Assembly (NCBI RefSeq): GCF_012932915.1
Contig: NZ_VCQU01000001.1
Coordinates: 496,001-560,000, forward strand
Length of the DNA: 64,000 nucleotides
Reading direction: 5' to 3'
Source of the DNA: Antrihabitans stalactiti
Lineage (GTDB): Bacteria; Actinomycetota; Actinomycetes; Mycobacteriales; Mycobacteriaceae
In this document: positions 5,459 through 14,833 of the stretch, piece after piece
Position numbering within the stretch: the first letter of the stretch is position 1
Layout: every line of letters starts with the position of its first letter
Notes under the pieces: model-generated
Databases searched by the model: none
Seen by the model: the letters and a program-made list of their open reading frames with translations, nothing else
Told to the model about the DNA's origin: nothing
Translations under genes and position numbers: made by a program

Positions 5459-5530
5459 GCGCGATTAGCTCAGCGGGAGAGCGCTTCCCTGACACGGAAG
5501 AGGTCACTGGTTCAATCCCAGTATCGCGCA
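5459..5530 (+). tRNA. tRNA-Val (anticodon GAC), integration target
   Basis: Acceptor stem GCGCGAT/ATCGCGC. Anticodon stem CTTCC/GGAAG encloses CTGACAC, giving GAC. An encoded CCA follows at 5531-5533. From base 5507 onward its 3' part is the left copy of a 34-bp direct repeat whose second copy lies at 14764-14797. The functional 3' end here is therefore supplied by the integrated element. Confidence 0.95.
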
Positions 5531-5540
5531 CCACAGTTAG
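5507..5540 (+). repeat. attL core repeat (34 bp, overlaps tRNA-Val 3' end)
   Basis: Identical over 34 bases to 14764-14797. It starts in the T-arm CTGGTTCAATCCCAG sequence and ends at CACAGTTAG beyond the CCA. The bases flanking each copy differ, so the repeat boundaries are sharp. Beyond the core, both copies continue into similar but not identical hairpins. Confidence 0.92.
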
Positions 5541-5548
5541 TGCAGGTC

Positions 5549-5569
5549 AGGCACCCTTTCGGGGTGCCT
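5549..5569 (+). terminator. Rho-independent terminator after tRNA-Val (element copy)
   Basis: The stem AGGCACCC/GGGTGCCT with a five-base loop is followed by a T-rich run (TTCTTGTTCT). It lies 16 bp after the CCA of tRNA-Val and should end the tRNA-Gly-Cys-Val transcript. It replaces the original chromosomal terminator now at 14800. Confidence 0.8.
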
Positions 5570-5580
5570 TTCTTGTTCTC

Positions 5581-5601
5581 ATGCGATAAGCATGCAATAG
5601 G
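5581..5601 (+). repeat. Left arm-type repeat, putative integrase arm site
   Basis: A 21-bp sequence made of two 11-bp units (ATGCGATAAGC, then ATGCAATAGG). It matches 14626-14646 at 19 of 21 positions in the same orientation. It sits 41 bp inside the left core repeat. Its position and tandem build fit arm-binding sites of a lambda-type tyrosine integrase (inference). Confidence 0.6.
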
Positions 5602-6033
5602 CGCCAGACAGGTCTACGGTCGCGGACGAATATTCCAGTACCGCGACCATCCGGAAGGCCCGCCACGATCACCACACCCTCAGCCGCAGCGACCATCGCC
5701 TTTAACGACCACAAAATTCTGTGGCAGACGCGCAATGCTGCGATCCCCCCTCCCCGCCGGCGCAATCGAAGCTGAGAAAATGGACGACGACTACGACTAC
5801 CCAGCCGCACGAGTTCGTCCGCTGGGAACTGGAGATGTACGGGCACTTCCGTCGTGTGGTCCGGCAGCCGGCTTCCCTCCGACACCGGACGTCACGACGC
5901 AGAAGATAGCCCGAGGGACTGACAAACCCTTTGCTTTCCCGAGATCAGCCGAAGAGGCGGCTCTATCGACGTCTACGAAGCAGCAGATGCATGATCGCCC
6001 GGTCAATCCGTGGATGGGTGGTAGCTTGCGGCG
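5602..6033. other. Left-end non-coding stretch of the element
   Basis: About 430 bp between the left arm repeat and the first element gene. Several short overlapping open frames occur, but none has a clear start, ribosome-binding site or recognisable motif. Confidence 0.4.
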
Positions 6034-6348
6034 ATGGAATCTTTGTACATCGTGTTGCTTATGGCTGCACTGATCTGCGGTTTCATAGCGGCGACCATTG
6101 CGGAGCAAAAGTGGCTGAGTTGGGGCGGGTACTTCGCTTTCGGCTTCTTCTTCGGACCGATAGGCATACTGGCAGCGGTTCTCGCCGCCACTCGCGTGCC
6201 CGCCCAAGGAGCGCCTCAATCGCGCTCGGACGCAGCGACTGCGCCGTCGGCAATATCCGAGCAACTCAAAGAGCTATCTGAATTACACGCCTCTGGAGTT
6301 CTGACCGACGACGAGTTCAGGGCTGCGAAGGCAAAGTTGCTCAGTTGA
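6034..6348 (+). CDS. Small membrane protein with C-terminal SHOCT-like motif
   Basis: 104 residues. Two N-terminal membrane helices (about 2-22 and 30-52: IVLLMAALICGFIAATIA and YFAFGFFFGPIGILAAVLAA) are followed by a polar linker. The short helical tail ISEQLKELSELHASGVLTDD continues into EFRAAKAKLLS and has the SHOCT pattern (leucine-rich helix, G-hydrophobic-T/S-x-x-E-F-x-x-x-K-x-x-L-L). SHOCT tails occur at the C-terminus of many small membrane proteins and are thought to mediate oligomerisation. It is element cargo with no operon partner on its strand nearby. Confidence 0.7.
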   Translation: MESLYIVLLMAALICGFIAATIAEQKWLSWGGYFAFGFFFGPIGILAAVLAATRVPAQGAPQSRSDAATAPSAISEQLKELSELHASGVLTDDEFRAAKAKLLS

Positions 6349-6474
6349 GCGCAACTTGCTGAGAAGGAGCACCGGGGCTGACGGCAGCGCTGGCGTCGCA
6401 CGATGCGCTGGGAAGGTTCTTTCCCCTCCGCACCCTTTAGAGCCAGACGACAGACCAGCACCTGAGGAGACTCA

Positions 6475-6951
6475 CTAACCAAAGGCAGTCGGCAAACAAG
6501 CGGAGCCGAAACACAGTTGCCCTACGACGACTGGAATTGGAGCGGCTGTGCCCGTCCCGCCATAAAACTCAGGGACCGGGGATGTGCCCCACATCTCGGA
6601 GCCGTCATCCACCCCGCAAACCCAGTACACGTGATACCGGCCGGGGGTTACTTCAGTCGAGACTTCATGCCCGTCTGCACCAGGCAGGACAGGTTTCAGC
6701 TGTCCGCGGTTTCCGAACCACGGCAGCTCGGGCGTCTCTTGGTCCGGCACCTCGGGGTCGGTGAACCCAATCTCCTCGCAGTTGATCTCGCGCGAAGTCC
6801 CGTTGTGGACGGTTACTGTGACGGTCGTTCCCGATACCGACGCCGTGGCTGTGACATTCCCCGGCGCAGCCTGGGCGGGGCCACCCGCGGACACCAAGCA
6901 CAGAAGACCCACGGATGTGACAACGGCGGTACGCAAAGTTGTGACGGTCAT
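6475..6951 (-). CDS. Secreted protein of unknown function
   Basis: 158 residues. A classical signal peptide (TLRTAVVTSVGLLCLVSAGG, then PAQA before A-P) predicts export and cleavage near residue 29. The mature part is beta-rich (ATASVSGTTVTVTVHNG) and has four cysteines (in REINCEE, YWVCGVD, QLCFG and SACLP), possibly two disulfides. The early part resembles an immunoglobulin-like or expansin-like fold, but no family was recognised. It is transcribed divergently from the three-gene cassette that starts near 7197 and is probably element cargo. Confidence 0.65.
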   Translation of the reverse strand: MTVTTLRTAVVTSVGLLCLVSAGGPAQAAPGNVTATASVSGTTVTVTVHNGTSREINCEEIGFTDPEVPDQETPELPWFGNRGQLKPVLPGADGHEVSTEVTPGRYHVYWVCGVDDGSEMWGTSPVPEFYGGTGTAAPIPVVVGQLCFGSACLPTAFG

Positions 6952-7196
6952 CTGAGCCTCAATTCAGCCTCTAGGATCACTAGCCTTCTGTGTACCCGGC
7001 CGATTGATAGCCCAATCAGTGGCCTCCATCAGCGAAGGCTTGTATTCCGCAAAATTGGAACTGGATGACAGCATTATCTGGGGCGATGACGGTGGCCCAA
7101 GGGGGATCGGCGACGGCTGATGCAGAATGCGACGCCCTGACCTCGAAACCTACGCGTCTGCCGACATGAACTTCCCGTCGGTTGTATGTTCAACTC

Positions 7197-7985
7197 GTGT
7201 CAACAAATGTGCCCGTAGTCCCCTTGCAACTTGCCCGATATGACAGTGAACCTCTTCAACGCAGTCCGCTCGTGCTGGTGGCGGCGCAGATCAACTTCGA
7301 AGAGATCGGGACCGGCGTATCCCACGCGCAAGCGCGCGAGATCCAAAAGGCTTTGGACGCTTCGTGGACCAGCCTGCAGCCCGCACCCCAGATGCGGGTC
7401 ACTCTCACTGCAACAGGGCCTGTTTCCGAAACAAGCCGCTCCGCATATCGGTTGCAATCGAGCGTCGGGGCCTGGTCTCTCGTCATCAGTCCAGACAGCG
7501 TGACACTTGAGACTCAGAATTACCCCGGTTGGGGAAAAATGGCGCCGCAAATAGAAAGTGTCGCCGACGCTGTTGCCAAAGTGTTTGACCCATCCCAATG
7601 TTTGCGTCTAGGGCTCAGATACATCGATAAGATTCCACTGCCAGACGGCCACGACAACTGGGATGGACTCATCCCGGCGGCGATCCGCAGTCTTCTGAGT
7701 GACCCCACCTTCGGCGGTTCTGTGTTGGGCTCCGATCAGCGCCACATGCTACAGCTAGAAGAGGGCGCGCTATGCATGTTTCACCACGGGTTACAAGCAG
7801 ACGATCAGGGCCGGGCCTCAGGCATATATCTGCTTGACTACGACGTCTTCGATCAAAGCCCCCGAGCATTCGCCGTCGGCGACATAATGGCGGCAACAAC
7901 TGTGCTCCATCAGCACACGGGCGCGCTGTTTCGCGCATCCCTCGACGACACGCTGTACGAATGGCTGAAAGGGGATGAGAAATAG
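7197..7985 (+). CDS. TIGR04255-like protein (cassette gene 1)
   Basis: About 262 residues from GTG 7197; an in-frame TTG at 7182 is an alternative, and neither has a strong ribosome-binding site. The pattern matches the sporadically distributed TIGR04255 family: an N-terminal LVLVAAQINFEEI strand, W-S-L-V-I-S followed by VTLETQNYPGW, LRLGLRYIDKIPLP, and the late GIYLLDYDVF. Biochemical function of that family is not known to me. The stop codon TAG is directly followed by the ATG of the next gene, so the two are translationally coupled. Base composition is lower in GC than the chromosome. Confidence 0.72.
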   Translation: MSTNVPVVPLQLARYDSEPLQRSPLVLVAAQINFEEIGTGVSHAQAREIQKALDASWTSLQPAPQMRVTLTATGPVSETSRSAYRLQSSVGAWSLVISPDSVTLETQNYPGWGKMAPQIESVADAVAKVFDPSQCLRLGLRYIDKIPLPDGHDNWDGLIPAAIRSLLSDPTFGGSVLGSDQRHMLQLEEGALCMFHHGLQADDQGRASGIYLLDYDVFDQSPRAFAVGDIMAATTVLHQHTGALFRASLDDTLYEWLKGDEK

Positions 7986-8747
7986 ATGTATTCAACCAAG
8001 ACCAGACTTGCGTCGCACGAGCCTTCTACGCTGCCGATCGACTATTTGACGACTGCCACTGAACTGGACGAGGTCCTCGACCCTTTCAGGACGCCTCTCA
8101 CCGATGCCACTTCACTTTCCGATGTCGTTACCAACCGCGACGCTCACAATCGGCCGTACGTGTATGTCGATCCCTGCATTGTGCGCTCGCCCCAGTTCCA
8201 TGATTGGCGCTGGAGCGCGGGCACGGCGACCTCGATCGACTTTGAGCCGACTCGCTACATCTTTGGGCTCATCGCGTCGGTCTGGCAATCGTCTCGCATG
8301 GGGTTCGCGACGAGCGACGCGCCAGTGTTCGACCGTGCCGCGCACGTGGATCTAGGTCCTGCGGCACACCTGCAGACCAGCCTCGCTGATATTCAAAGGT
8401 GGCTTGGCATCGGCCTTCAACAAGCGACAGACGCCGCAGGGATCAGTCGCGGAACCGTCTACGCGTGGCGCGATCGCGACAGCACGCCGCGGCCGGCGAC
8501 CGTACACGGGCCCGTTTTGAGACTGCATGGCCTCATCTCTTCAGCAGTAGAAGCCGTCGGGCGCGACGGCGCGCGCGCCTGGTTCCATCAGGGTGAACCG
8601 TCGCCGCTGGATCAGCTGGTAGATGCGCGCGGTGATACGGAAAAGGTGCGTCTCGTCGCGGCGCGATTGCGACGTGCGCTCACCGCGCCTCCTCTGCCGC
8701 CCGTCGACGACATGTTGGCGGCAAACTTCGCTGACGCCGCTGAGTAA
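7986..8747 (+). CDS. HTH protein with DUF2384-like (MbcA/ParS/Xre) tail (cassette gene 2)
   Basis: 253 residues. The first 125 are unassigned. Residues about 132-170 form a helix-turn-helix (DIQRWLGIGLQQATDAAG, then ISRGTVYAWRD). Residues about 176-232 resemble the toxin-binding DUF2384 domain of MbcA/ParS/Xre antitoxins (LISSAVEAVGRDGARAWFHQ and PSPLDQLVDARGD). In that family the protein neutralises a RES-domain toxin and represses its own operon. No RES toxin is next door here, so the partner may be one of the flanking unknown proteins, or the domain may be recruited for another sensing role (inference). It starts immediately after the stop of cassette gene 1. Confidence 0.6.
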   Translation: MYSTKTRLASHEPSTLPIDYLTTATELDEVLDPFRTPLTDATSLSDVVTNRDAHNRPYVYVDPCIVRSPQFHDWRWSAGTATSIDFEPTRYIFGLIASVWQSSRMGFATSDAPVFDRAAHVDLGPAAHLQTSLADIQRWLGIGLQQATDAAGISRGTVYAWRDRDSTPRPATVHGPVLRLHGLISSAVEAVGRDGARAWFHQGEPSPLDQLVDARGDTEKVRLVAARLRRALTAPPLPPVDDMLAANFADAAE

Positions 8748-8761
8748 GAACAAGCGACGAC

Positions 8762-9634
8762 GTGACTGAAAGTAGTGCAATCGGCGACTTCGGAAATTGC
8801 GATCCTTGGCCAGAGGGCCTGTTTGAGCACCTTGATACCTACCGGCAGGGCCATATCATCGAGAACGTCCCGGCGTTCTTTCTAGAGGCCGCACTCGCGC
8901 CGATATGGAGCCCTCCGAGACAACAACTGAGTTCGCTCACGCCGACGATTGCGGGCGAGTTCGGATATGGGCCCATGCGCGCGATGATGCTCACGCAAGC
9001 TTGTGACCTGCTAAAGAGGACGAATCCTTGGATCACCGTTGCGCCGGTCTATGATGCCGCCAACCGACTTCAACCAGGACAACACGGACAAGTCAGAAGT
9101 GGCCAATTCGGCCACTTCATACCCATCACCGCCGACTGGGCGACGAGTGGGCTTTGGGTCGCGGACCTTCGCCTAGAAATGCCTCTGGAAAAAACAGTCC
9201 TGATCGGTCAAACCCCACTCGAGGCGTTCGGAAATGACCTTGAATATGCCTTGCTTGCGCGGAAGCTTGGTGCTCGGCGGCAGCGGCTTGCCGCACCGCT
9301 GCCGTGTATCGCCCACCTTTCCGAACCGCTATACGACGGACTGCGGCGACAACCAGATGGAGGTGAAGCGCTAAACGCGCACGTTCGAGAGCTTCGAGTT
9401 CAGTGGAACGATCCCACAAACCCAACCGTCCTTGCGCTCTTCGTCGTGGCTTTAGACGAATCCGAGCGCTCGCAGATCGATGTCGACGGTTGGACTGAGC
9501 TTGTACTTAGTCTGTACCAGTCTGCGTACGCCGAAGGCGTCACTATCGTCGGTCCGGAATTCACAAGTATCGAAGTCATGTCGGCGGCCGACTATGTAAC
9601 AAGTTCGCTCATCGAGGACACACAATCGTCCTAA
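8762..9634 (+). CDS. Unknown protein, cassette gene 3
   Basis: 290 residues from GTG 8762, 14 bp after cassette gene 2, so probably one operon. No domain was recognised with confidence. A segment MMLTQACDLLKR (residues about 76-87) resembles the S/T-Q-x-C-D motif seen in some uncharacterised bacterial proteins. There is no signal peptide, membrane helix or RES, PIN or nuclease motif that I can see. Length, lower GC and fixed position after an antitoxin-like gene suggest an effector or partner of the module, but this is inference. Confidence 0.5.
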   Translation: MTESSAIGDFGNCDPWPEGLFEHLDTYRQGHIIENVPAFFLEAALAPIWSPPRQQLSSLTPTIAGEFGYGPMRAMMLTQACDLLKRTNPWITVAPVYDAANRLQPGQHGQVRSGQFGHFIPITADWATSGLWVADLRLEMPLEKTVLIGQTPLEAFGNDLEYALLARKLGARRQRLAAPLPCIAHLSEPLYDGLRRQPDGGEALNAHVRELRVQWNDPTNPTVLALFVVALDESERSQIDVDGWTELVLSLYQSAYAEGVTIVGPEFTSIEVMSAADYVTSSLIEDTQSS

Positions 9635-10110
9635 CATGATTGTCCCGCCCATTGGTCCGGGCACTCGATCACCCCGCGAAGCCAAAACATCGGAAAGCCG
9701 CATGCAAACTGTGGGGTGCTATGTGAACCGGGTGCCGGATGGGTGGGGTTGGGGGGTGCCAGGGGTATCTGACAAACATCCCGTACGGCGCGTACAAGAA
9801 TGCCGTACAGGTGTCGAGCCCGCCTCATGCAGGCCGAGGGCGGTATCCCTCTCCCCCGAACATCTCCTCGAGGTACCCGGCCACAGCGGTGGTGTCGGCC
9901 CATCATCAGGGCGCGTCGAGAGCCGATCTCAACGGCTTCTCCGACGTTCGCGACGGGGACTTGTCACCACCGTCGCCGGGGTCGCCACGCGCAGCTTGGA
10001 GGCATCCAATCGGCCTTCCGGGGTATGTGGGATCTGCTGTGAATAGATGGGTGCCTATGCCGGAGGGTGCGCGGCGGGTGCCGAGGGCGGTTGGTCCCCC
10101 ACCCCCCTGG
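9635..10110. other. Gap between cassette and minus-strand element genes
   Basis: About 475 bp between two convergent gene blocks. It holds G-rich runs (near 9740-9765) and several GTAC-containing repeats near 9780-9810. No coding frame is convincing. Termination of both blocks is expected here, but no strong hairpin with a T-run was found. Confidence 0.4.
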
Positions 10111-10890
10111 TCACACGGACGCGCGTGGATGAGCCGCAGCCTCGACGGCGGCCGCCGCACGGTCTCGCCTCTCCTGGTCCAACGCGCTGCGGCGGCGCCG
10201 GAATTCGCTGACGGTCGGCAGCGCCGGTGTCGCCCCTGAACACGCCACGTTCCAGGCAGTGGGCGCGCGTCCGCCGGTGTCGGCTTCGATCTGTTCGGCG
10301 GTGTCGAGGTCGACGGCGGCGAAGCGTAAGACACGGTGTCTGTGTCCTGATGTGTCGATCCGCTGGAGTCCGGCGAGGGTCGCGAACCCTGTAGTCGCGA
10401 GGTCGAAGCGGGCGACGGCTTCGACTGCTGCGGTCCATGCCGCGAGCGCGTCGGCGCCGGCCCTGAGGACGCTGCGAGTGTCGTCCAAGTCAGTCGTGGG
10501 CAGAGCGGTGGCGGCGTGGACGAGTGCCTCGCCGTCGGCCTCGAGGTCGCCGCGCCACTGCTCAAGCAGTTCGTCGGAGTGCTGAATGAGGACGCCGGCG
10601 ACGAGGGCGTCGGCTTCGGCGCGGCCGCGTTCGCCGAAGGACTGGAGCCCGAGCTGCACGCCCAGTTGTGCGATGCGGACTGCCTTGTCGACCGCGGGGT
10701 CTCTGCCCGCGCGGATGGCGGCGAGGACGGCGCCGGCGAGCTGATCGTGGGTTGCGACGAGCGCACCACATTCGCGAGCGAGCCGATCGGCTTCGGCGAA
10801 TCCGTCAACGACGGCCGGCGGTATGGGCAGTTCGAGCTGTCTAGCCGCCTGCGTGACAATCTGCCGGGCAGCGGATCCGGATGTTGGCAT
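10111..10890 (-). CDS. Element protein of unknown function
   Basis: 259 residues from ATG 10890, preceded by an AAAGG ribosome-binding sequence. It is very alanine-rich and predicted mostly helical (for example AGADALAAWTAAVEAVARFD), with no recognisable catalytic motif, signal peptide or membrane helix. It is last in the long minus-strand gene run that starts at the integrase, ten bases after the small gene at 10901. A longer open frame extends upstream in the same frame but overlaps two small genes with their own starts, so it was not used. Confidence 0.6.
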   Translation of the reverse strand: MPTSGSAARQIVTQAARQLELPIPPAVVDGFAEADRLARECGALVATHDQLAGAVLAAIRAGRDPAVDKAVRIAQLGVQLGLQSFGERGRAEADALVAGVLIQHSDELLEQWRGDLEADGEALVHAATALPTTDLDDTRSVLRAGADALAAWTAAVEAVARFDLATTGFATLAGLQRIDTSGHRHRVLRFAAVDLDTAEQIEADTGGRAPTAWNVACSGATPALPTVSEFRRRRSALDQERRDRAAAAVEAAAHPRASV

Positions 10891-10900
10891 GGTGAGCCTT

Positions 10901-11098
10901 TCAGCGGTAGTCGTAGGTGTCGACATTGTCGCGGAAGAAATTGCGGGACCATTCCCGCTCGAATCGGCCGGGCCGCTCGCTGTGAACAGGGCCGCCCTCG
11001 CGGGGCACGTGGTTCCGCGGCTGTGCGGGTTCGGGTTCTGTCGTCCGGTCGAACAGGTCGTCGGCCAGTTGGCGGAACTCGTCGTCGTGTTCGAACAT
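10901..11098 (-). CDS. Small acidic element protein
   Basis: 65 residues, charged (MFEHDDEFRQLADDLFDRTT). Its ATG directly abuts the TGA of the preceding 59-residue gene, so the two are translationally coupled. The family was not recognised. Part of the element's minus-strand operon. Confidence 0.5.
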   Translation of the reverse strand: MFEHDDEFRQLADDLFDRTTEPEPAQPRNHVPREGGPVHSERPGRFEREWSRNFFRDNVDTYDYR

Positions 11099-11278
11099 TC
11101 ACTTGCCGAACAGTTTTCGTGCGGTCGCCCGCGCGGCGGCGGTCTCGTCGGCGTTATCGTCGGTGCGGGGTTCCCTTGTGCGGGCAACGAGTTCGGCGAA
11201 TTGGTCGTCGTCGAGTTCGGCAACGAATGCCTCGATCGCGGTGACTACTGCCTCGGTCAGATCGGTTGTCGTTGCCAT
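11099..11278 (-). CDS. Small acidic element protein
   Basis: 59 residues, MATTTDLTEAVVTAIEAFVA continuing into ELDDDQFAELVARTRE and ending ARKLFGK. It is helical and acidic at the start, basic at the end. It is very short but sits between coupled genes and has consistent GC-rich codon use. Function unknown. Confidence 0.5.
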   Translation of the reverse strand: MATTTDLTEAVVTAIEAFVAELDDDQFAELVARTREPRTDDNADETAAARATARKLFGK

Positions 11279-11293
11279 TTCAGGTGCCTTCCC

Positions 11294-11581
11294 TTAGTCG
11301 AATACCCAGCGGCCAGCCACTTTTCTGCCGCCGAACTTGTGTGCATGTCTGCGAATTGTTCTTGCACTGCAACCGTTTTCGGTTGCGATGTCGTGTGCTG
11401 CTTTCAATGGTGCGCCGGTTTGTGCGTGAACGGTAGGGATGTGACCGGTAGCGGACAATTCGGTTCGTAGGTTCCTGTCGAGGGTGCGGAGCCATGGTGG
11501 TATGGGTTGTCCGTAGCGGCTGCGTTGGCGGATTGTGTCTGCGACGAGGTAGGCGCACGCCCGCACAGTGTCGGGAGTCAT
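11294..11581 (-). CDS. Small DNA-binding (HTH) element protein
   Basis: 95 residues. The C-terminal part HDIATENGCSARTIRRHAHK followed by FGGRKVAGRWVF reads as a helix-turn-helix with a beta-wing, as in small phage and plasmid DNA-binding proteins. Its ATG overlaps the stop of the initiator-like gene by four bases (ATGA). Likely a regulator of replication or excision for the element (inference). Confidence 0.6.
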   Translation of the reverse strand: MTPDTVRACAYLVADTIRQRSRYGQPIPPWLRTLDRNLRTELSATGHIPTVHAQTGAPLKAAHDIATENGCSARTIRRHAHKFGGRKVAGRWVFD

Positions 11582-12486
11582 GCCGGTTCAGGCTTTCCGT
11601 TCGCGCGGGGTTGGCGCCGTTCGCGCAGGATCACGTAGCGCGCCGCCGGGTAGCTCTTGCCTTCTGCGAGTAGGTGTTCGGCTCGTGCGCGCTCCCCCCG
11701 CAGGAAGCCTTGGGGCAACTCTCGGTCGATCCACGCGAGCGGATTCTTGGTGGGATCGGGTTCGGGGTGCGGTGCGAACTGCGTGGTTGCCTGCGGCGGT
11801 TCTTGGATCGGTGCGCGTGTTGTTAGACGCTCGAACGACGACGTGATTGGCGAGGTGATGTCGGTGGTGTCGGTGCCGTCGGGCTCGTCGATTACCTCCG
11901 CGTCGACCACTTCGGGTTCATCTTCTTCGTGTCCCGTTTTGTCGTCGCGCGCGTGCGCGATACGAAACGTAAGGGGAGAACTCTCTGGTGTAAGAGGATC
12001 TGGTGCTGCGTAAGTAGTGATCTGGTGGTAGGCAGTCTGGGTTGCACCTATTAAAGGGGTCTGATTGCACCTATTAACGTCCGTGATTGCACCTATTTCG
12101 GCCGTATTAGGTGCAGTCTGGGTTGCCCCCTTTTCGTCGGCTGAAATAGGTGCAGTCTGGGTTGCCTCCATTTCCGTCGGAATCACGAGCCGGTATACGT
12201 CGGATCGGCGGTTGCCTCGGCCGCGTGGCGCCTTCTCTGTCAGCTCGATGAAGCCACGCGTCAGTCCGGTCGCCAGCGCCGTCTTCACGGTCCGTTGGGA
12301 GACGTGCCCGTACTTCCCCTTGGCTGTATGCAGTTGCTCGGCGATGTTCCGCACGCCAGGACGCGCGTTCGACCCGTCCGGGTCCGCGTAGGACTCGAGT
12401 TCGAGCAACACGCGCCGGGTGGCTTCAGACAGGCCCGGGTCGCGCACCACGATCCGACGCCACGCATAACGCATCGAATGGGCCAT
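11578..12486 (-). CDS. Replication-initiator-like winged-helix protein
   Basis: 302 residues. The N-terminal domain (about 15-100) is a helix-turn-helix typical of phage and plasmid replication proteins: RRVLLELESYADPDGSNARP, IAEQLHTAKGKYGHVSQRTV and TRGFIELTEKAPRGRG. The middle has a repetitive GATQTA-type low-complexity stretch (about 110-155) that is the translation of the iteron cluster at 12030-12165. After an acidic linker the C-terminal segment (NPLAWIDRELPQGFLRGERA) resembles a conserved tail. Origin-in-initiator is the lambda O arrangement. The protein is inferred to bind these iterons and start element replication. It follows a zinc-finger-like gene by three bases. Confidence 0.65.
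   Translation of the reverse strand: MAHSMRYAWRRIVVRDPGLSEATRRVLLELESYADPDGSNARPGVRNIAEQLHTAKGKYGHVSQRTVKTALATGLTRGFIELTEKAPRGRGNRRSDVYRLVIPTEMEATQTAPISADEKGATQTAPNTAEIGAITDVNRCNQTPLIGATQTAYHQITTYAAPDPLTPESSPLTFRIAHARDDKTGHEEDEPEVVDAEVIDEPDGTDTTDITSPITSSFERLTTRAPIQEPPQATTQFAPHPEPDPTKNPLAWIDRELPQGFLRGERARAEHLLAEGKSYPAARYVILRERRQPRANGKPEPA
12030..12165. repeat. Iteron cluster inside the initiator gene, putative origin
   Basis: Three direct copies of TTGCACCTATT lie at 12042, 12065 and 12087, spaced 23 and 22 bp, about two helical turns. Two inverted copies, (A)ATTAGGTGCAG near 12106 and AATAGGTGCAG at 12145, each continue into CAGTCTGGGTTGC. The same CAGTCTGGGTTGC also precedes the first direct copy. 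AT-rich pockets lie between them. All of this is within the coding sequence of the initiator-like gene. Confidence 0.65.
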
Positions 12487-12489
12487 TCG

Positions 12490-12669
12490 TCAGCCGCTCC
12501 GGACCGTCGAATTCGGCGCGTTTCGCGGGTAGGTCGGGAAACCGCAACGGCCGCAGTGGATTTCCAATCCGTGGCCGTACCTCGCGCAATAGTCGCAATT
12601 CGCACATAATCCGTCGAACGGGTGCCCTGGACGATCGGTCTCGCGACCGCAGAGAATGCAGACAGTCAT
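12490..12669 (-). CDS. Small zinc-ribbon-like element protein
   Basis: 59 residues with four CxxC-like pairs: CILC, CANC, CDYC and CGRC. This suggests one or two structural zinc sites (MTVCILCGRETDRPG to LEIHCGRCGFPTYP). It starts at ATG 12669 and ends three bases before the initiator-like gene. Short zinc-ribbon proteins are common in actinophages and small elements; the specific role is unknown. Confidence 0.6.
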   Translation of the reverse strand: MTVCILCGRETDRPGHPFDGLCANCDYCARYGHGLEIHCGRCGFPTYPRNAPNSTVRSG

Positions 12670-12766
12670 GCCGACCACCTGCTTGGGAGCGCTACGCTCG
12701 ATGTAGTCCGTTGTCGTGGTGGATGCTGAAGAGGGCCGGTCCGAGGGGACCGGCTTTTTCGTTCCG

Positions 12767-12961
12767 TCATGCTGCACCACCGACCGGGCGCAGCAGTTGG
12801 TCGAGTTCTTCGAGGTCGACCTTGAGGAGTCGCGGGCCGATCCGGTAGCCGGTGATTCGGCCGGCAGCGATGTAGCGCCGGATCGTCTTCGTCGACACGT
12901 CGCAGCATTCGGCTGCGACGGCAATGCTCGCGAGACGACGTGCAGATTTGTTCATCGGCAT
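12767..12961 (-). CDS. xis: Putative excisionase (MerR-type HTH)
   Basis: 64 residues. The sequence AAECCDVSTKTIRRYIAAGR followed by ITGYRIGPRLLKVDLEELDQ is the compact winged helix of the excisionase/MerR-like DNA-binding family used as recombination directionality factors. It is encoded on the same strand as the integrase, with one gene between them. The start is ATG 12961 or the second ATG at 12955. The ribosome-binding GAAAGGGG lies in a hairpin (12968-12988), suggesting translational control. Confidence 0.72.
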   Translation of the reverse strand: MPMNKSARRLASIAVAAECCDVSTKTIRRYIAAGRITGYRIGPRLLKVDLEELDQLLRPVGGAA

Positions 12962-12967
12962 GGTTCA

Positions 12968-12988
12968 GTAATCCCCTTTCGGGATTAC
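12968..12988 (-). promoter_or_regulatory. Hairpin covering the xis ribosome-binding site
   Basis: A perfect 8-bp stem GTAATCCC/GGGATTAC has a five-base loop. In the transcript the loop and one arm contain the GAAAGGGG ribosome-binding sequence, six bases before the xis ATG. Folding would hide the site. Confidence 0.5.
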
Positions 12989-13105
12989 CGTCGCCACGCG
13001 GTTTCAGTTCGACATGTCCATGCCGGGCCAACAGTGTTCGGCTGTGTCTCAACTTTACAGCGGCTCGGCAAGTTTGCCGACCCCTTCAATAAACTAAGTC
13101 CGCAC

Positions 13106-13507
13106 TCATGGAAGTTGGATCTCGGCGCCACGGCGATTCGCGGCCAGGTCAGCTCGTATCTGTTCGGCGGTGACGATTTCGCTGACATGGTCGCATCTCG
13201 CACCGAACCGCTCCGGTCCCGGAGAGTCCCGCAGCAAGAATGCCGCTCGCTTGGTTCGGTTTTGGGGAGTGCCGTCAACTTTCATCGCGCGTGATGTGGA
13301 CACCTTGCCCGGTGGGTGGCCGACCAGCACGCCTTCGGTTGTGTCGAGGATGTGCAGCAGTGCGCAGCGGCAGTTTCGGCCCCGATAGGTCAGCAGGAGG
13401 TGGGATTTCAGTTTCCGCGTGCGTACCAGCTCTTCGTAGAGTCGGACTCGTCGGGCGTGCGCAGCGTGAGCGCTGTCGAAAACATCCCGGACGAACTCGT
13501 CGTTCAT
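13106..13507 (-). CDS. Unknown element protein between xis and int
   Basis: 133 residues, basic. It begins MNDEFVRDVFDSAHAAHARR, has an internal LKSHLLLTYRGRNCRCALLH segment, and ends QLP. Its ATG overlaps the integrase stop by four bases, so it is coupled to the integrase. No family was recognised. The position suggests a role in recombination control or immunity, but nothing in the sequence shows it. Confidence 0.55.
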   Translation of the reverse strand: MNDEFVRDVFDSAHAAHARRVRLYEELVRTRKLKSHLLLTYRGRNCRCALLHILDTTEGVLVGHPPGKVSTSRAMKVDGTPQNRTKRAAFLLRDSPGPERFGARCDHVSEIVTAEQIRADLAANRRGAEIQLP

Positions 13508-14610
13508 TCTGCACGCACCATTGCCGAGAGGGCTTGCGCGATAGCGTGATCGCGTCCGGCTGCAGTGTGCTGATACCGCAATGCAGCCTGCGGCGTCGAG
13601 TGCCCGAGCCTGCCCATCAGTTCGGCGAGCGTCGCCCCCGTCGAGGCCGCGAGGACCGCTCCTGTGTGCCGCAGGTCGTGCCAGCGGAGGTCTGGTCGCC
13701 CGGCAGCATCGCGAGCTTTGTAGAACTGCCTGTAGAGCGCTGAGGGCGCCAGGTGGCCACCGTGCTGCGCGGGAAACAGCAGCGCATCGCGGCCAGAATC
13801 GGTGTGCACCATCAAGTGTCGCTCTACCGCTGGCATCAGGTGTGGAGGAACCGCGACGTCTCGAGTACCGGCATCGGACTTCGGTGTCGTTACCTCGAAC
13901 CCACCACTAACGCGGACAACGGCGCGGCGAATCCTGACGACACCGTTCTTTGTGTCAATGTCTTTGCGGCGCAACTCCGTTAGTTCACCGAACCGGAGTC
14001 CGCACCACGCGGCGAGCAAGGTCATCACCTTGTAGCGGTCGGGCATGGCCGTCACCAATGCTTCGATTTCGGGCAGGGTTGCGGGCTTGATCTTCTTGAC
14101 TCGCTTCGAGGTCCCAGCACCGACGATCGTGCACGGGTTCGACGGGATCAGCCCATCCCCTGCGGCGGTCGTCAGAATCGACTTCAGCAGCCCGTAGGCG
14201 TGCGCCCTGGTGGTCGGCTTGCCGAGTGCCGCAGTGGCGTACCACTTTCGGACCGATGGCGAGGTGATGAGTCGGATGTCGGTGTCGTCGAACGTCGGCA
14301 GCAGGTAGTCATCGAGGATGTCTCGGTAGTGGGCGCGGGTTCGGGACTTCAGAGTGCGTTGCGTCAACCATGCCTCCGCGAACACAGCGAAGGTCGCGCT
14401 CGGCGCCTCTTCCTGCCCGCTCGATGGTGACCAGAGTTCGCGGTCGATTTCGCGGCGGCGGTCGGTCAACCATGCTTCGGCGTCGACCTTCGCACCGAAC
14501 GTCGACGGTGCCTTGTGCACGTTGCCGTCCGGCCCGACGTAAGCGGCCTGCCATCGGTTCGACGGTTTGACCTGTCGGAGCCTGCCGAACGTTCTTCGGT
14601 TGCGCGTCAC
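13504..14610 (-). CDS. int: Tyrosine-recombinase integrase
   Basis: About 368 residues from GTG 14610, preceded by an AGCAGG ribosome-binding sequence. An in-frame ATG at 14655 would add residues translated from the arm-repeat region and is less likely. An N-terminal AP2-like arm-binding domain, a SAM-like core-binding domain (about 65-150) and the catalytic domain are present. Catalytic residues are visible: Arg in AAWCGLRFGELTEL, His-x-x-Arg in LRWHDLRHTG, His in LGHSTPQAALRYQH and the terminal Tyr of that motif. It should catalyse site-specific integration at the tRNA-Val 3' end, where it sits about 150 bp from the right core. Confidence 0.93.
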   Translation of the reverse strand: MTRNRRTFGRLRQVKPSNRWQAAYVGPDGNVHKAPSTFGAKVDAEAWLTDRRREIDRELWSPSSGQEEAPSATFAVFAEAWLTQRTLKSRTRAHYRDILDDYLLPTFDDTDIRLITSPSVRKWYATAALGKPTTRAHAYGLLKSILTTAAGDGLIPSNPCTIVGAGTSKRVKKIKPATLPEIEALVTAMPDRYKVMTLLAAWCGLRFGELTELRRKDIDTKNGVVRIRRAVVRVSGGFEVTTPKSDAGTRDVAVPPHLMPAVERHLMVHTDSGRDALLFPAQHGGHLAPSALYRQFYKARDAAGRPDLRWHDLRHTGAVLAASTGATLAELMGRLGHSTPQAALRYQHTAAGRDHAIAQALSAMVRAE

Positions 14611-14625
14611 CGAGCCTGCTTTCCC

Positions 14626-14646
14626 ATGCAATAAACATGCAATAGG
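14626..14646 (+). repeat. Right arm-type repeat, putative integrase arm site
   Basis: Tandem ATGCAATAAAC and ATGCAATAGG units, matching the left copy at 5581-5601 in 19 of 21 positions and the same orientation. It lies just upstream of the integrase start and 118 bp inside the right core. In the excised circle the two arm repeats would flank the core. Confidence 0.6.
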
Positions 14647-14763
14647 AGAGTACATCTGTGGCCGCTTGTGGTCACTAGTGGCTCGCGGTACTGTTCGAAG
14701 AACATGCAGGTCAGCTGCCTAGAAATGCTGGTCAAACAACAGAAACGCACCGAGCATATGACT

Positions 14764-14797
14764 CTGGTTCAATCCCAGTATCGCGCACCACAGTTAG
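14764..14797 (+). repeat. attR core repeat (34 bp)
   Basis: Exact duplicate of the tRNA-Val 3' end at 5507-5540, lying downstream of the integrase with no tRNA body. It marks the right end of the element and is the original chromosomal tRNA tail. Confidence 0.92.
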
Positions 14798-14799
14798 AC

Positions 14800-14833
14800 C
14801 AGGTCAGGCCCCCTTTCGAGGGGGCCTGACCTG
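14800..14833 (+). terminator. Original tRNA-Val terminator, displaced by the element
   Basis: A perfect 15-bp stem CAGGTCAGGCCCCCT/AGGGGGCCTGACCTG with loop TTCG, two bases after the right core repeat. It resembles the hairpin after tRNA-Val at 5549, so the element appears to carry its own terminator replacement. There is only a short T-run after it. Confidence 0.75.

What the first reader, a model, noticed from the sequence alone, without database searches (positions are those of the whole stretch)
7197..9634. Three-gene cassette: TIGR04255-like, HTH/DUF2384-like, unknown protein
Seen: tightly packed, co-oriented genes (stop-start abutting, then 14 bp), lower GC than the chromosome, inside a mobile element. 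The middle protein pairs a helix-turn-helix with a tail like the toxin-binding domain of MbcA/ParS/Xre antitoxins, yet no RES toxin is present. The third protein is unassigned with a TQACDL motif. Element cargo with an antitoxin-like centre is a common layout for toxin-antitoxin or anti-phage modules, and this combination is not one I recognise.
Basis: partly seen in the sequence, partly recalled or inferred. Interest (0 to 1): 0.78.

Follow-up and report, generated by a model that had tools for sequence, protein, structure and literature searches.

The report
Three-gene toxin-antitoxin-like cassette
A small mobile element carries three linked genes that look like an unusual toxin-antitoxin set, whose first gene belongs to an unstudied family that also sits in front of several known toxin types in other bacteria.

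Summary
In detail: three co-oriented, abutting genes at 7197-9634 in a 9.3-kb element with 58-bp flanking repeats at tRNA-Val and an integrase. Gene 1 is TIGR04255 (106.8 bits). Gene 2 has an Xre-type HTH and a tail; its family profile matches the antitoxin MbcA across both (E 5e-9). Gene 3 belongs to an unnamed family marked by QG and QxCD. Of 103 non-redundant TIGR04255 loci (window included), 40 carry the same gene 2 and 3 classes and 20 a sister pair, none crossed. Elsewhere slot 3 held single cases of recognised toxins: RES, PemK/MazF, PIN, HEPN. Best reading: a three-component toxin-antitoxin-type module with gene 2 as antitoxin, gene 3 as toxin of a new family, and gene 1 as a constant partner, analogous to SecB-type TAC chaperones but without SecB similarity. 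Toxicity, neutralisation and gene 1's role are inferred. Structure prediction was off, the gene 2 tail alone does not retrieve MbcA, and a MazF-like fold for gene 3 is only hinted at. No paper in the held library names TIGR04255.

The parts
5459..5533 (+). tRNA-Val (GAC), integration target of the element
   Evidence: ARAGORN
5507..5564 (.). left attachment-type repeat (overlaps the tRNA-Val 3' end)
   Evidence: 58-nt direct repeat, 93% identical to 14764-14821
14764..14821 (.). right attachment-type repeat
13504..14655 (-). tyrosine integrase of the element
   Evidence: PF00589 6e-19, PF14659 1.3e-6
7197..7985 (+). gene 1: TIGR04255 family protein, constant partner of the module
   Evidence: TIGR04255 106.8 bits; 52% identical relative in L018
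7986..8747 (+). gene 2: HTH plus MbcA-like tail, putative antitoxin and repressor
   Evidence: family profile A9 to MbcA 6fkg_C 5.3e-9; Xre-like-HTH in 17 of 27 members at E 0.1, though not in the window protein itself
8762..9634 (+). gene 3: QG/QxCD family, putative toxin
   Evidence: family alignment A8; class A gene 3 follows class A gene 2 in 40 of 103 loci

Best explanation
The cassette is a three-component toxin-antitoxin-type module carried as cargo of a small integrative element. Gene 2 is an antitoxin and autorepressor: an Xre-type HTH for the operon's own promoter and an MbcA-like tail that holds the toxin. Gene 3 is the toxin, of a family not previously assigned. Gene 1 (TIGR04255) is a constant third partner that probably binds the freshly made antitoxin, with which it is usually translationally coupled, and stabilises it or reports a signal; when gene 1 is lost or titrated, for example by phage, gene 3 is freed. 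Shown here: operon structure, family membership of gene 1, recurrence of the triad, class matching of genes 2 and 3, MbcA-like profile of gene 2, recognised toxins in slot 3 of other TIGR04255 loci. Inferred: toxicity of gene 3, neutralisation by gene 2, binding by gene 1, the operator, and the trigger.
For: Class A triad in 40 of 103 non-redundant TIGR04255 loci (window included) plus a sister class B triad in 20, none crossed. Profile comparison joins class A and B gene 2 (P 1.9e-11) and gene 3 A with B (P 1e-5) and A with a short form (3.6e-12). The gene 1-gene 2 junction is a 4-base overlap in 56 of 103; 77 of 92 TIGR04255-seeded loci start gene 2 within -14 to +3 of the gene 1 stop, and 74 of those 77 have gene 3 within 20 bp (my script preferred start codons at -14 to +20, so these two counts lean that way). 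Gene 2 profile finds MbcA at 5.3e-9; tail shuffles 0 of 500. Slot 3 of other TIGR04255 operons: PemK/MazF 1.1e-18, RES 1.1e-11, PIN 6.8e-11, HEPN 4.7e-8, one member each of 37 proteins scanned. Class A triads lie on plasmids typed as conjugative (L087, L089, L090, L092).
Against: No function has been tested in any triad. At E 0.01 only one case each of RES, PemK, PIN and HEPN was seen; all but three or four of the 32 loci in neither class have unassigned third genes or no evident partner. Gene 3 has nothing better than E 0.05 in Pfam, NCBIfam, PADLOC or PHROGs, and its family profile nothing better than E 1 in the PDB. The gene 2 tail alone does not find MbcA in the PDB, and no DUF2384 model hit occurred. 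Some TIGR04255 genes of the host's family show no such partner in the 1.5 kb held (L060-L062, L071), so the family has other uses. The TIGR04255 profile shows no relation to SecB. No operator or promoter above chance was found upstream.
Confidence: 0.62

Rival explanations
1. Anti-phage abortive-infection system rather than an addiction module: gene 1 senses infection, gene 2 is the switch, gene 3 the effector. The parts are the same; the difference is the trigger and the selected role.
For: Cargo of an integrative element; a TIGR04255 operon (neither class A nor B) on a Rhizobium plasmid lies next to a multiubiquitin-ThiF-DUF6527 set, and a class B triad lies before a TIR-like gene by my reading (L045); slot 3 of L042 is an AbiEii-like AAA protein.
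Against: PADLOC gave only one sub-threshold-looking match, mad1 to gene 2's HTH at E 0.018, and none for genes 1 and 3; defence-gene neighbourhoods were not counted against a background.
Confidence: 0.35
2. Gene 1 is the toxin or effector and gene 3 a regulator or accessory enzyme; gene 2 only represses the operon.
For: Gene 1 is the constant member; gene 3 has no known toxin fold.
Against: Gene 1 is kept while slot 3 varies and in single cases holds recognised toxins; TIGR04255 genes without such partners exist, which a toxin would not easily allow (inference).
Confidence: 0.13
3. A non-toxic regulatory or metabolic operon: a conserved HTH-regulated protein pair of unknown chemistry that spreads on mobile elements.
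For: Gene 3 has conserved Q, C, D, K and R that could be an active site of any sort.
Against: Gene 2 resembles a toxin-binding antitoxin, not only a repressor; class-matched gene 2-gene 3 pairs and recognised toxins in slot 3 elsewhere.
Confidence: 0.12

Closest known systems
MbcTA / RES-Xre (ParST) toxin-antitoxin systems
   Same: Gene 2's family matches MbcA through HTH and C-terminal region; the antitoxin-like gene precedes the toxin slot. One TIGR04255 operon elsewhere (L024) has a RES gene in slot 3.
   Different: No RES match in this genome at E 1e-5; gene 3 profiles show no relation to the one RES sequence compared; TIGR04255 leads the operon.
TAC systems (toxin-antitoxin-SecB-like chaperone)
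   Same: A third-partner family attached to unrelated toxin-antitoxin types; passages of PMC5105189 describe SecB-like chaperones with HigBA, MqsRA and HicAB pairs.
   Different: TIGR04255 has no SecB similarity by profile and stands first in the operon; chaperone activity is not shown.
MazF/PemK toxins
   Same: Class B gene 3 aligns with a MazF profile over 91 columns, the best of ten targets compared (P 0.0014). One TIGR04255 operon (L120) has a true PemK gene in slot 3.
   Different: Class A, to which the window gene belongs, shows no relation (P 0.4); the QxCD signature is not a MazF feature (recalled).
HipBST and other three-gene toxin-antitoxin systems
   Same: Tripartite toxin-antitoxin system (search listing and start of abstract of PMC10627512).
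   Different: Different protein families (recalled).

Membership tests
TIGR04255 | score over the curated cut-off (30 bits) over most of the model | tested here: met
   106.8 bits, positions 2-249 of 252
MbcTA / RES-Xre toxin-antitoxin | antitoxin with Xre-type HTH | tested here: met
   By family: PF20432 in 17 of 27 members at E 0.1 and profile to 6fkg_C; the window protein alone shows only weak HTH matches (0.03 or worse in Pfam)
MbcTA / RES-Xre toxin-antitoxin | toxin-binding (DUF2384-type) tail in the antitoxin | tested here: inconclusive
   Tail raises the MbcA match from 17.3 to 39.0 bits, 0 of 500 shuffles; no PF09722 hit in 27 members; tail-only profile does not find MbcA in the PDB
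MbcTA / RES-Xre toxin-antitoxin | RES-domain toxin beside the antitoxin | tested here: not met
   gene 3 has no RES match; own genome 0 RES at E 1e-5
TAC (toxin-antitoxin-chaperone) | SecB-like chaperone gene | tested here: not met
   gene 1 profiles against 28 SecB sequences: P 0.91 and 0.84
TAC (toxin-antitoxin-chaperone) | antitoxin folding depends on the partner through an added segment | not testable with these tools
   a short N-terminal motif in gene 2 is a candidate only, absent from the window's gene 2
MazF/PemK toxin | sequence-profile relation to MazF | tested here: inconclusive
   class B P 0.0014, class A P 0.4, short form P 0.12, merged core P 0.098
type II toxin-antitoxin module (general) | toxicity relieved by the antitoxin through binding | not testable with these tools
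   needs expression tests

The most novel reading that the evidence does not exclude
TIGR04255 is a general third component, a control protein attached to at least five unrelated toxin-antitoxin types (the QxCD family, RES, PemK/MazF, PIN, HEPN). It would define a class of tripartite toxin-antitoxin systems parallel to but unrelated to SecB-based TAC, together with a new large toxin family (QG...QxCD) that may be a remote MazF-fold branch.
Probability: 0.5. Interest if true: 0.85.

Novelty: new variant of a known kind. Interest (0 to 1): 0.72.

Why it matters
TIGR04255 is a family that NCBI labels sporadic and that no paper in the held library names. If it is the constant control protein of many toxin-antitoxin pairs, many unassigned operon neighbours gain a testable role, and it would show for a second time that unrelated toxin-antitoxin pairs are put under the control of one kind of third protein. 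Gene 3 would be a new toxin family on plasmids and chromosomes of several phyla.

Tried and rejected
Gene 2 as a single-sequence query found nothing in plasmids or genome contigs and only itself in 351 family genomes; profiles were needed. Gene 3 found nothing in plasmids or phages as a single sequence, and two relatives found nothing in phages. RES as the fold of gene 3: no relation, P 0.38 to 0.53, but the RES side was one sequence because my collection of RES relatives failed. SecB as the fold of gene 1: no relation, P 0.91 and 0.84. MazF as the fold of gene 3 is left open. A first set of 19 MazF sequences gave scores 26.3 (class B), 21.9 (merged core) and 17.1 (class A), with 0 of 60 column-shuffled decoys reaching each. 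With 31 sequences the core fell to 15.0 and class A to 11.9, while class B stayed at 26.7; an unrelated pair (class A gene 3 with class B gene 2) scored 24.5 over 13 columns, so such scores are not strong. HicA in L074 and HEPN in L077 are below cut-off (0.045, 0.048), and L059's slot 3 has no Pfam hit; L112's slot 3 has no PDB match at 0.01. Upstream of gene 1 only two weak inverted repeats and no promoter above chance. Not counted: weak gene-3 hits L008 and L015-L017, without TIGR04255 in the locus; L082, L084, L085, L111, L129, L133 and L135, no gene 1 by my own profile; L083, L130 and L136, above the E 1e-3 limit; L075, cut by the contig end. L043 is counted as class A although its gene 3 lacks the QxCD stretch.

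Full report
What is there. Three genes on the plus strand, 7197-7985, 7986-8747 and 8762-9634, stop-to-start abutting and then 14 bp apart. They lie in a 9.3-kb element bounded by a 58-nt repeat (5507-5564 and 14764-14821, 93% identical) whose left copy covers the 3' end of tRNA-Val, with a tyrosine integrase next to the right copy.

Gene 1 is a TIGR04255 protein, the only one found in the genome. Genes 2 and 3 match no Pfam or NCBIfam model above its cut-off, and PADLOC and PHROGs give nothing better than E 0.018.

Conserved synteny, seeded from gene 3. A single-protein search in 351 family genomes (own genome included) gave 6 hits: the window, L004-L007 and L008. L004-L007 show TIGR04255, HTH gene, gene 3 in this order; L008 does not. 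A profile search in 396 genomes of the phylum gave 9 hits: the window, the L007 locus again, four new triads L011-L014, and three weak hits L015-L017 without TIGR04255. In plasmids 7 records matched a class A gene 3 (L048's); 6 have TIGR04255 upstream and the seventh, covering 37% of the query, does not.

Conserved synteny, seeded from TIGR04255. I took loci from named genomes (38 loci; query close to the window's own gene 1, so biased to near relatives), one viral contig, 396 phylum genomes (31 with a match, own included), plasmids (5 records), five genomes behind earlier loci, and the phyla of two of those (13 of 146 and 21 of 249 genomes, the two seed genomes included). With the window and the gene-3-seeded loci, 118 loci, repeats of one place included, had gene 1 (E 1e-3, own profile) and room downstream; 103 had a downstream ORF and remained after near-identical gene 2 were removed. 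Of the 103: 40 have class A gene 2 with class A gene 3, 20 class B with class B, none crossed, 3 class A gene 2 without a recognised gene 3, 8 a short gene 3 form without a recognised HTH gene 2, 32 neither (E 0.01). The class profiles were built from a part of these same loci, so the classes are descriptive, and the absence of crossing partly reflects common descent of whole operons. 92 of the 103 were seeded by TIGR04255; the other 11 (window and ten) were found by gene 3, so 29 of the 92 are class A pairs. The gene 1-gene 2 junction is a 4-base overlap in 56 of 103; my script preferred start codons at -14 to +20, which favours close junctions.

What sits in slot 3. In class A the motif is mostly [ST]QTCD[LIV], with G30, C81, D82, P95 and K144 of the window protein invariant in 24 aligned members. 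In class B it is H[PA]C[SAT][MIL]R. The short form, which I picked by the pattern itself, has QG[DE] and [STN][QN]xCD[LM]. Profile comparison links A with B (P 1e-5, probability 82%), A with short (3.6e-12) and B with short (4.5e-7). In other TIGR04255 operons slot 3 is recognised: 37 proteins, 34 of them slot-3 and 3 slot-2, were scanned against Pfam at E 0.01 and gave one PemK/MazF (1.1e-18, L120), one RES (1.1e-11), one PIN (6.8e-11), one HEPN (4.7e-8) and one AbiEii-like AAA (1e-28). The tool names only the first member: RES is L024; PIN as L112 and AAA as L042 are my reading of the sequences; HEPN is L110 or L136, and L110 matches HEPN chain 9xbd_A at 3e-4. L112, L120 and L024 have a gene 2 of 79, 95 and 179 aa that overlaps or abuts both neighbours. 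These are single cases, and I did not test how often toxin genes follow a random mobile-element gene.

Gene 2. The 27-member profile A9 against all PDB sequences gives MbcA (6fkg_C) first, 5.3e-9, covering MbcA 17-110, then an Xre/MbcA/ParS-like antitoxin, 5.9e-5. Against MbcA 17-110 the profile scores 39.0 bits; the HTH part alone 17.3; with the tail shuffled the maximum of 500 is 31.0. A C-terminal profile scores 11.8 bits on MbcA's tail against 6.9 for the best of 500 shuffles, but a 14-member C-terminal profile finds no MbcA in the whole PDB at E 5. So the MbcA-like tail is well supported in context and not independently. What MbcA does (neutralises the NAD-destroying toxin MbcT by binding) I take from the abstract of PMC7291234.

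Mechanism. The steps shown are sequence-level: operon, families, recurrence, class matching, resemblance to an antitoxin, toxins in the same slot elsewhere. That gene 3 is toxic, that gene 2 holds it, and that gene 1 acts on gene 2 are inferences. TAC systems are the working analogy: SecB-like chaperones attached to HigBA, MqsRA and HicAB pairs through an added antitoxin segment (passages of PMC5105189). TIGR04255 is not SecB-like by profile, so it is not filed there. A short N-terminal motif T[SRK][AS]x[GS] occurs in 12 of 43 class A, 8 of 20 class B and 3 of 31 other gene 2 proteins (others limited to a junction under 30 bp), against means of 1.5, 0.6 and 0.6 in 2000 shuffles with maxima 7, 4 and 4. 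The pattern was chosen after looking, and the window's gene 2 lacks it; it is a candidate contact for gene 1, no more.

A MazF-like fold for gene 3 was tested and stays open: class B against 31 MazF-family sequences P 0.0014, the best of ten targets, but class A P 0.4, short P 0.12, merged core P 0.098.

Literature. No paper in the held library contains TIGR04255. Searches around three-component and RES/Xre toxin-antitoxin systems gave HipBST, TAC, MbcTA and others (listings and abstract starts only). The NetFlax paper PMC10440598 has no mention of TIGR04255, MbcA or DUF2384 in its main text (find). Most subscription papers are not held, and no preprint collection is, so novelty is provisional.

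Noticed in passing
window 5507-14821: 9.3-kb integrative element at tRNA-Val with integrase, a SHOCT-domain gene (6034-6348, PF09851 4e-10) and a small putative exported protein gene (6475-6951, minus, no Pfam hit).
   Followed up: partly
window 11001-12200: Strong AT skew (-0.353 over 11001-12000) and short repeats with GCAGTCTGGGTTGC at 12032-12172, inside the element.
   Followed up: no
L045 7174-7959: A TIR-like protein gene (by my reading) directly follows a class B triad in a Frankiales MAG.
   Followed up: no
L086 3174-5471: Multiubiquitin, ThiF and DUF6527 genes lie just upstream of a TIGR04255 operon (neither class A nor B) on a Rhizobium conjugative plasmid.
   Followed up: no
L042 5723-7542: Class A gene 2 is followed by an AAA ATPase instead of gene 3.
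   Followed up: partly
L109, L116, L125, L126 slot 3: A further unassigned slot-3 family (93 to 137 aa as read) follows TIGR04255 with its own gene 2 type.
   Followed up: no
L060, L061, L062, L071, L096: TIGR04255 genes without recognisable partners in the 1.5 kb held; the first four are in the host's family, L096 in a Mycobacterium angelicum record set. Possibly a standalone form.
   Followed up: no
gene 2 N-termini, many loci: Short TSAxGS-like motif near the N-terminus of class A and B gene 2 proteins.
   Followed up: partly
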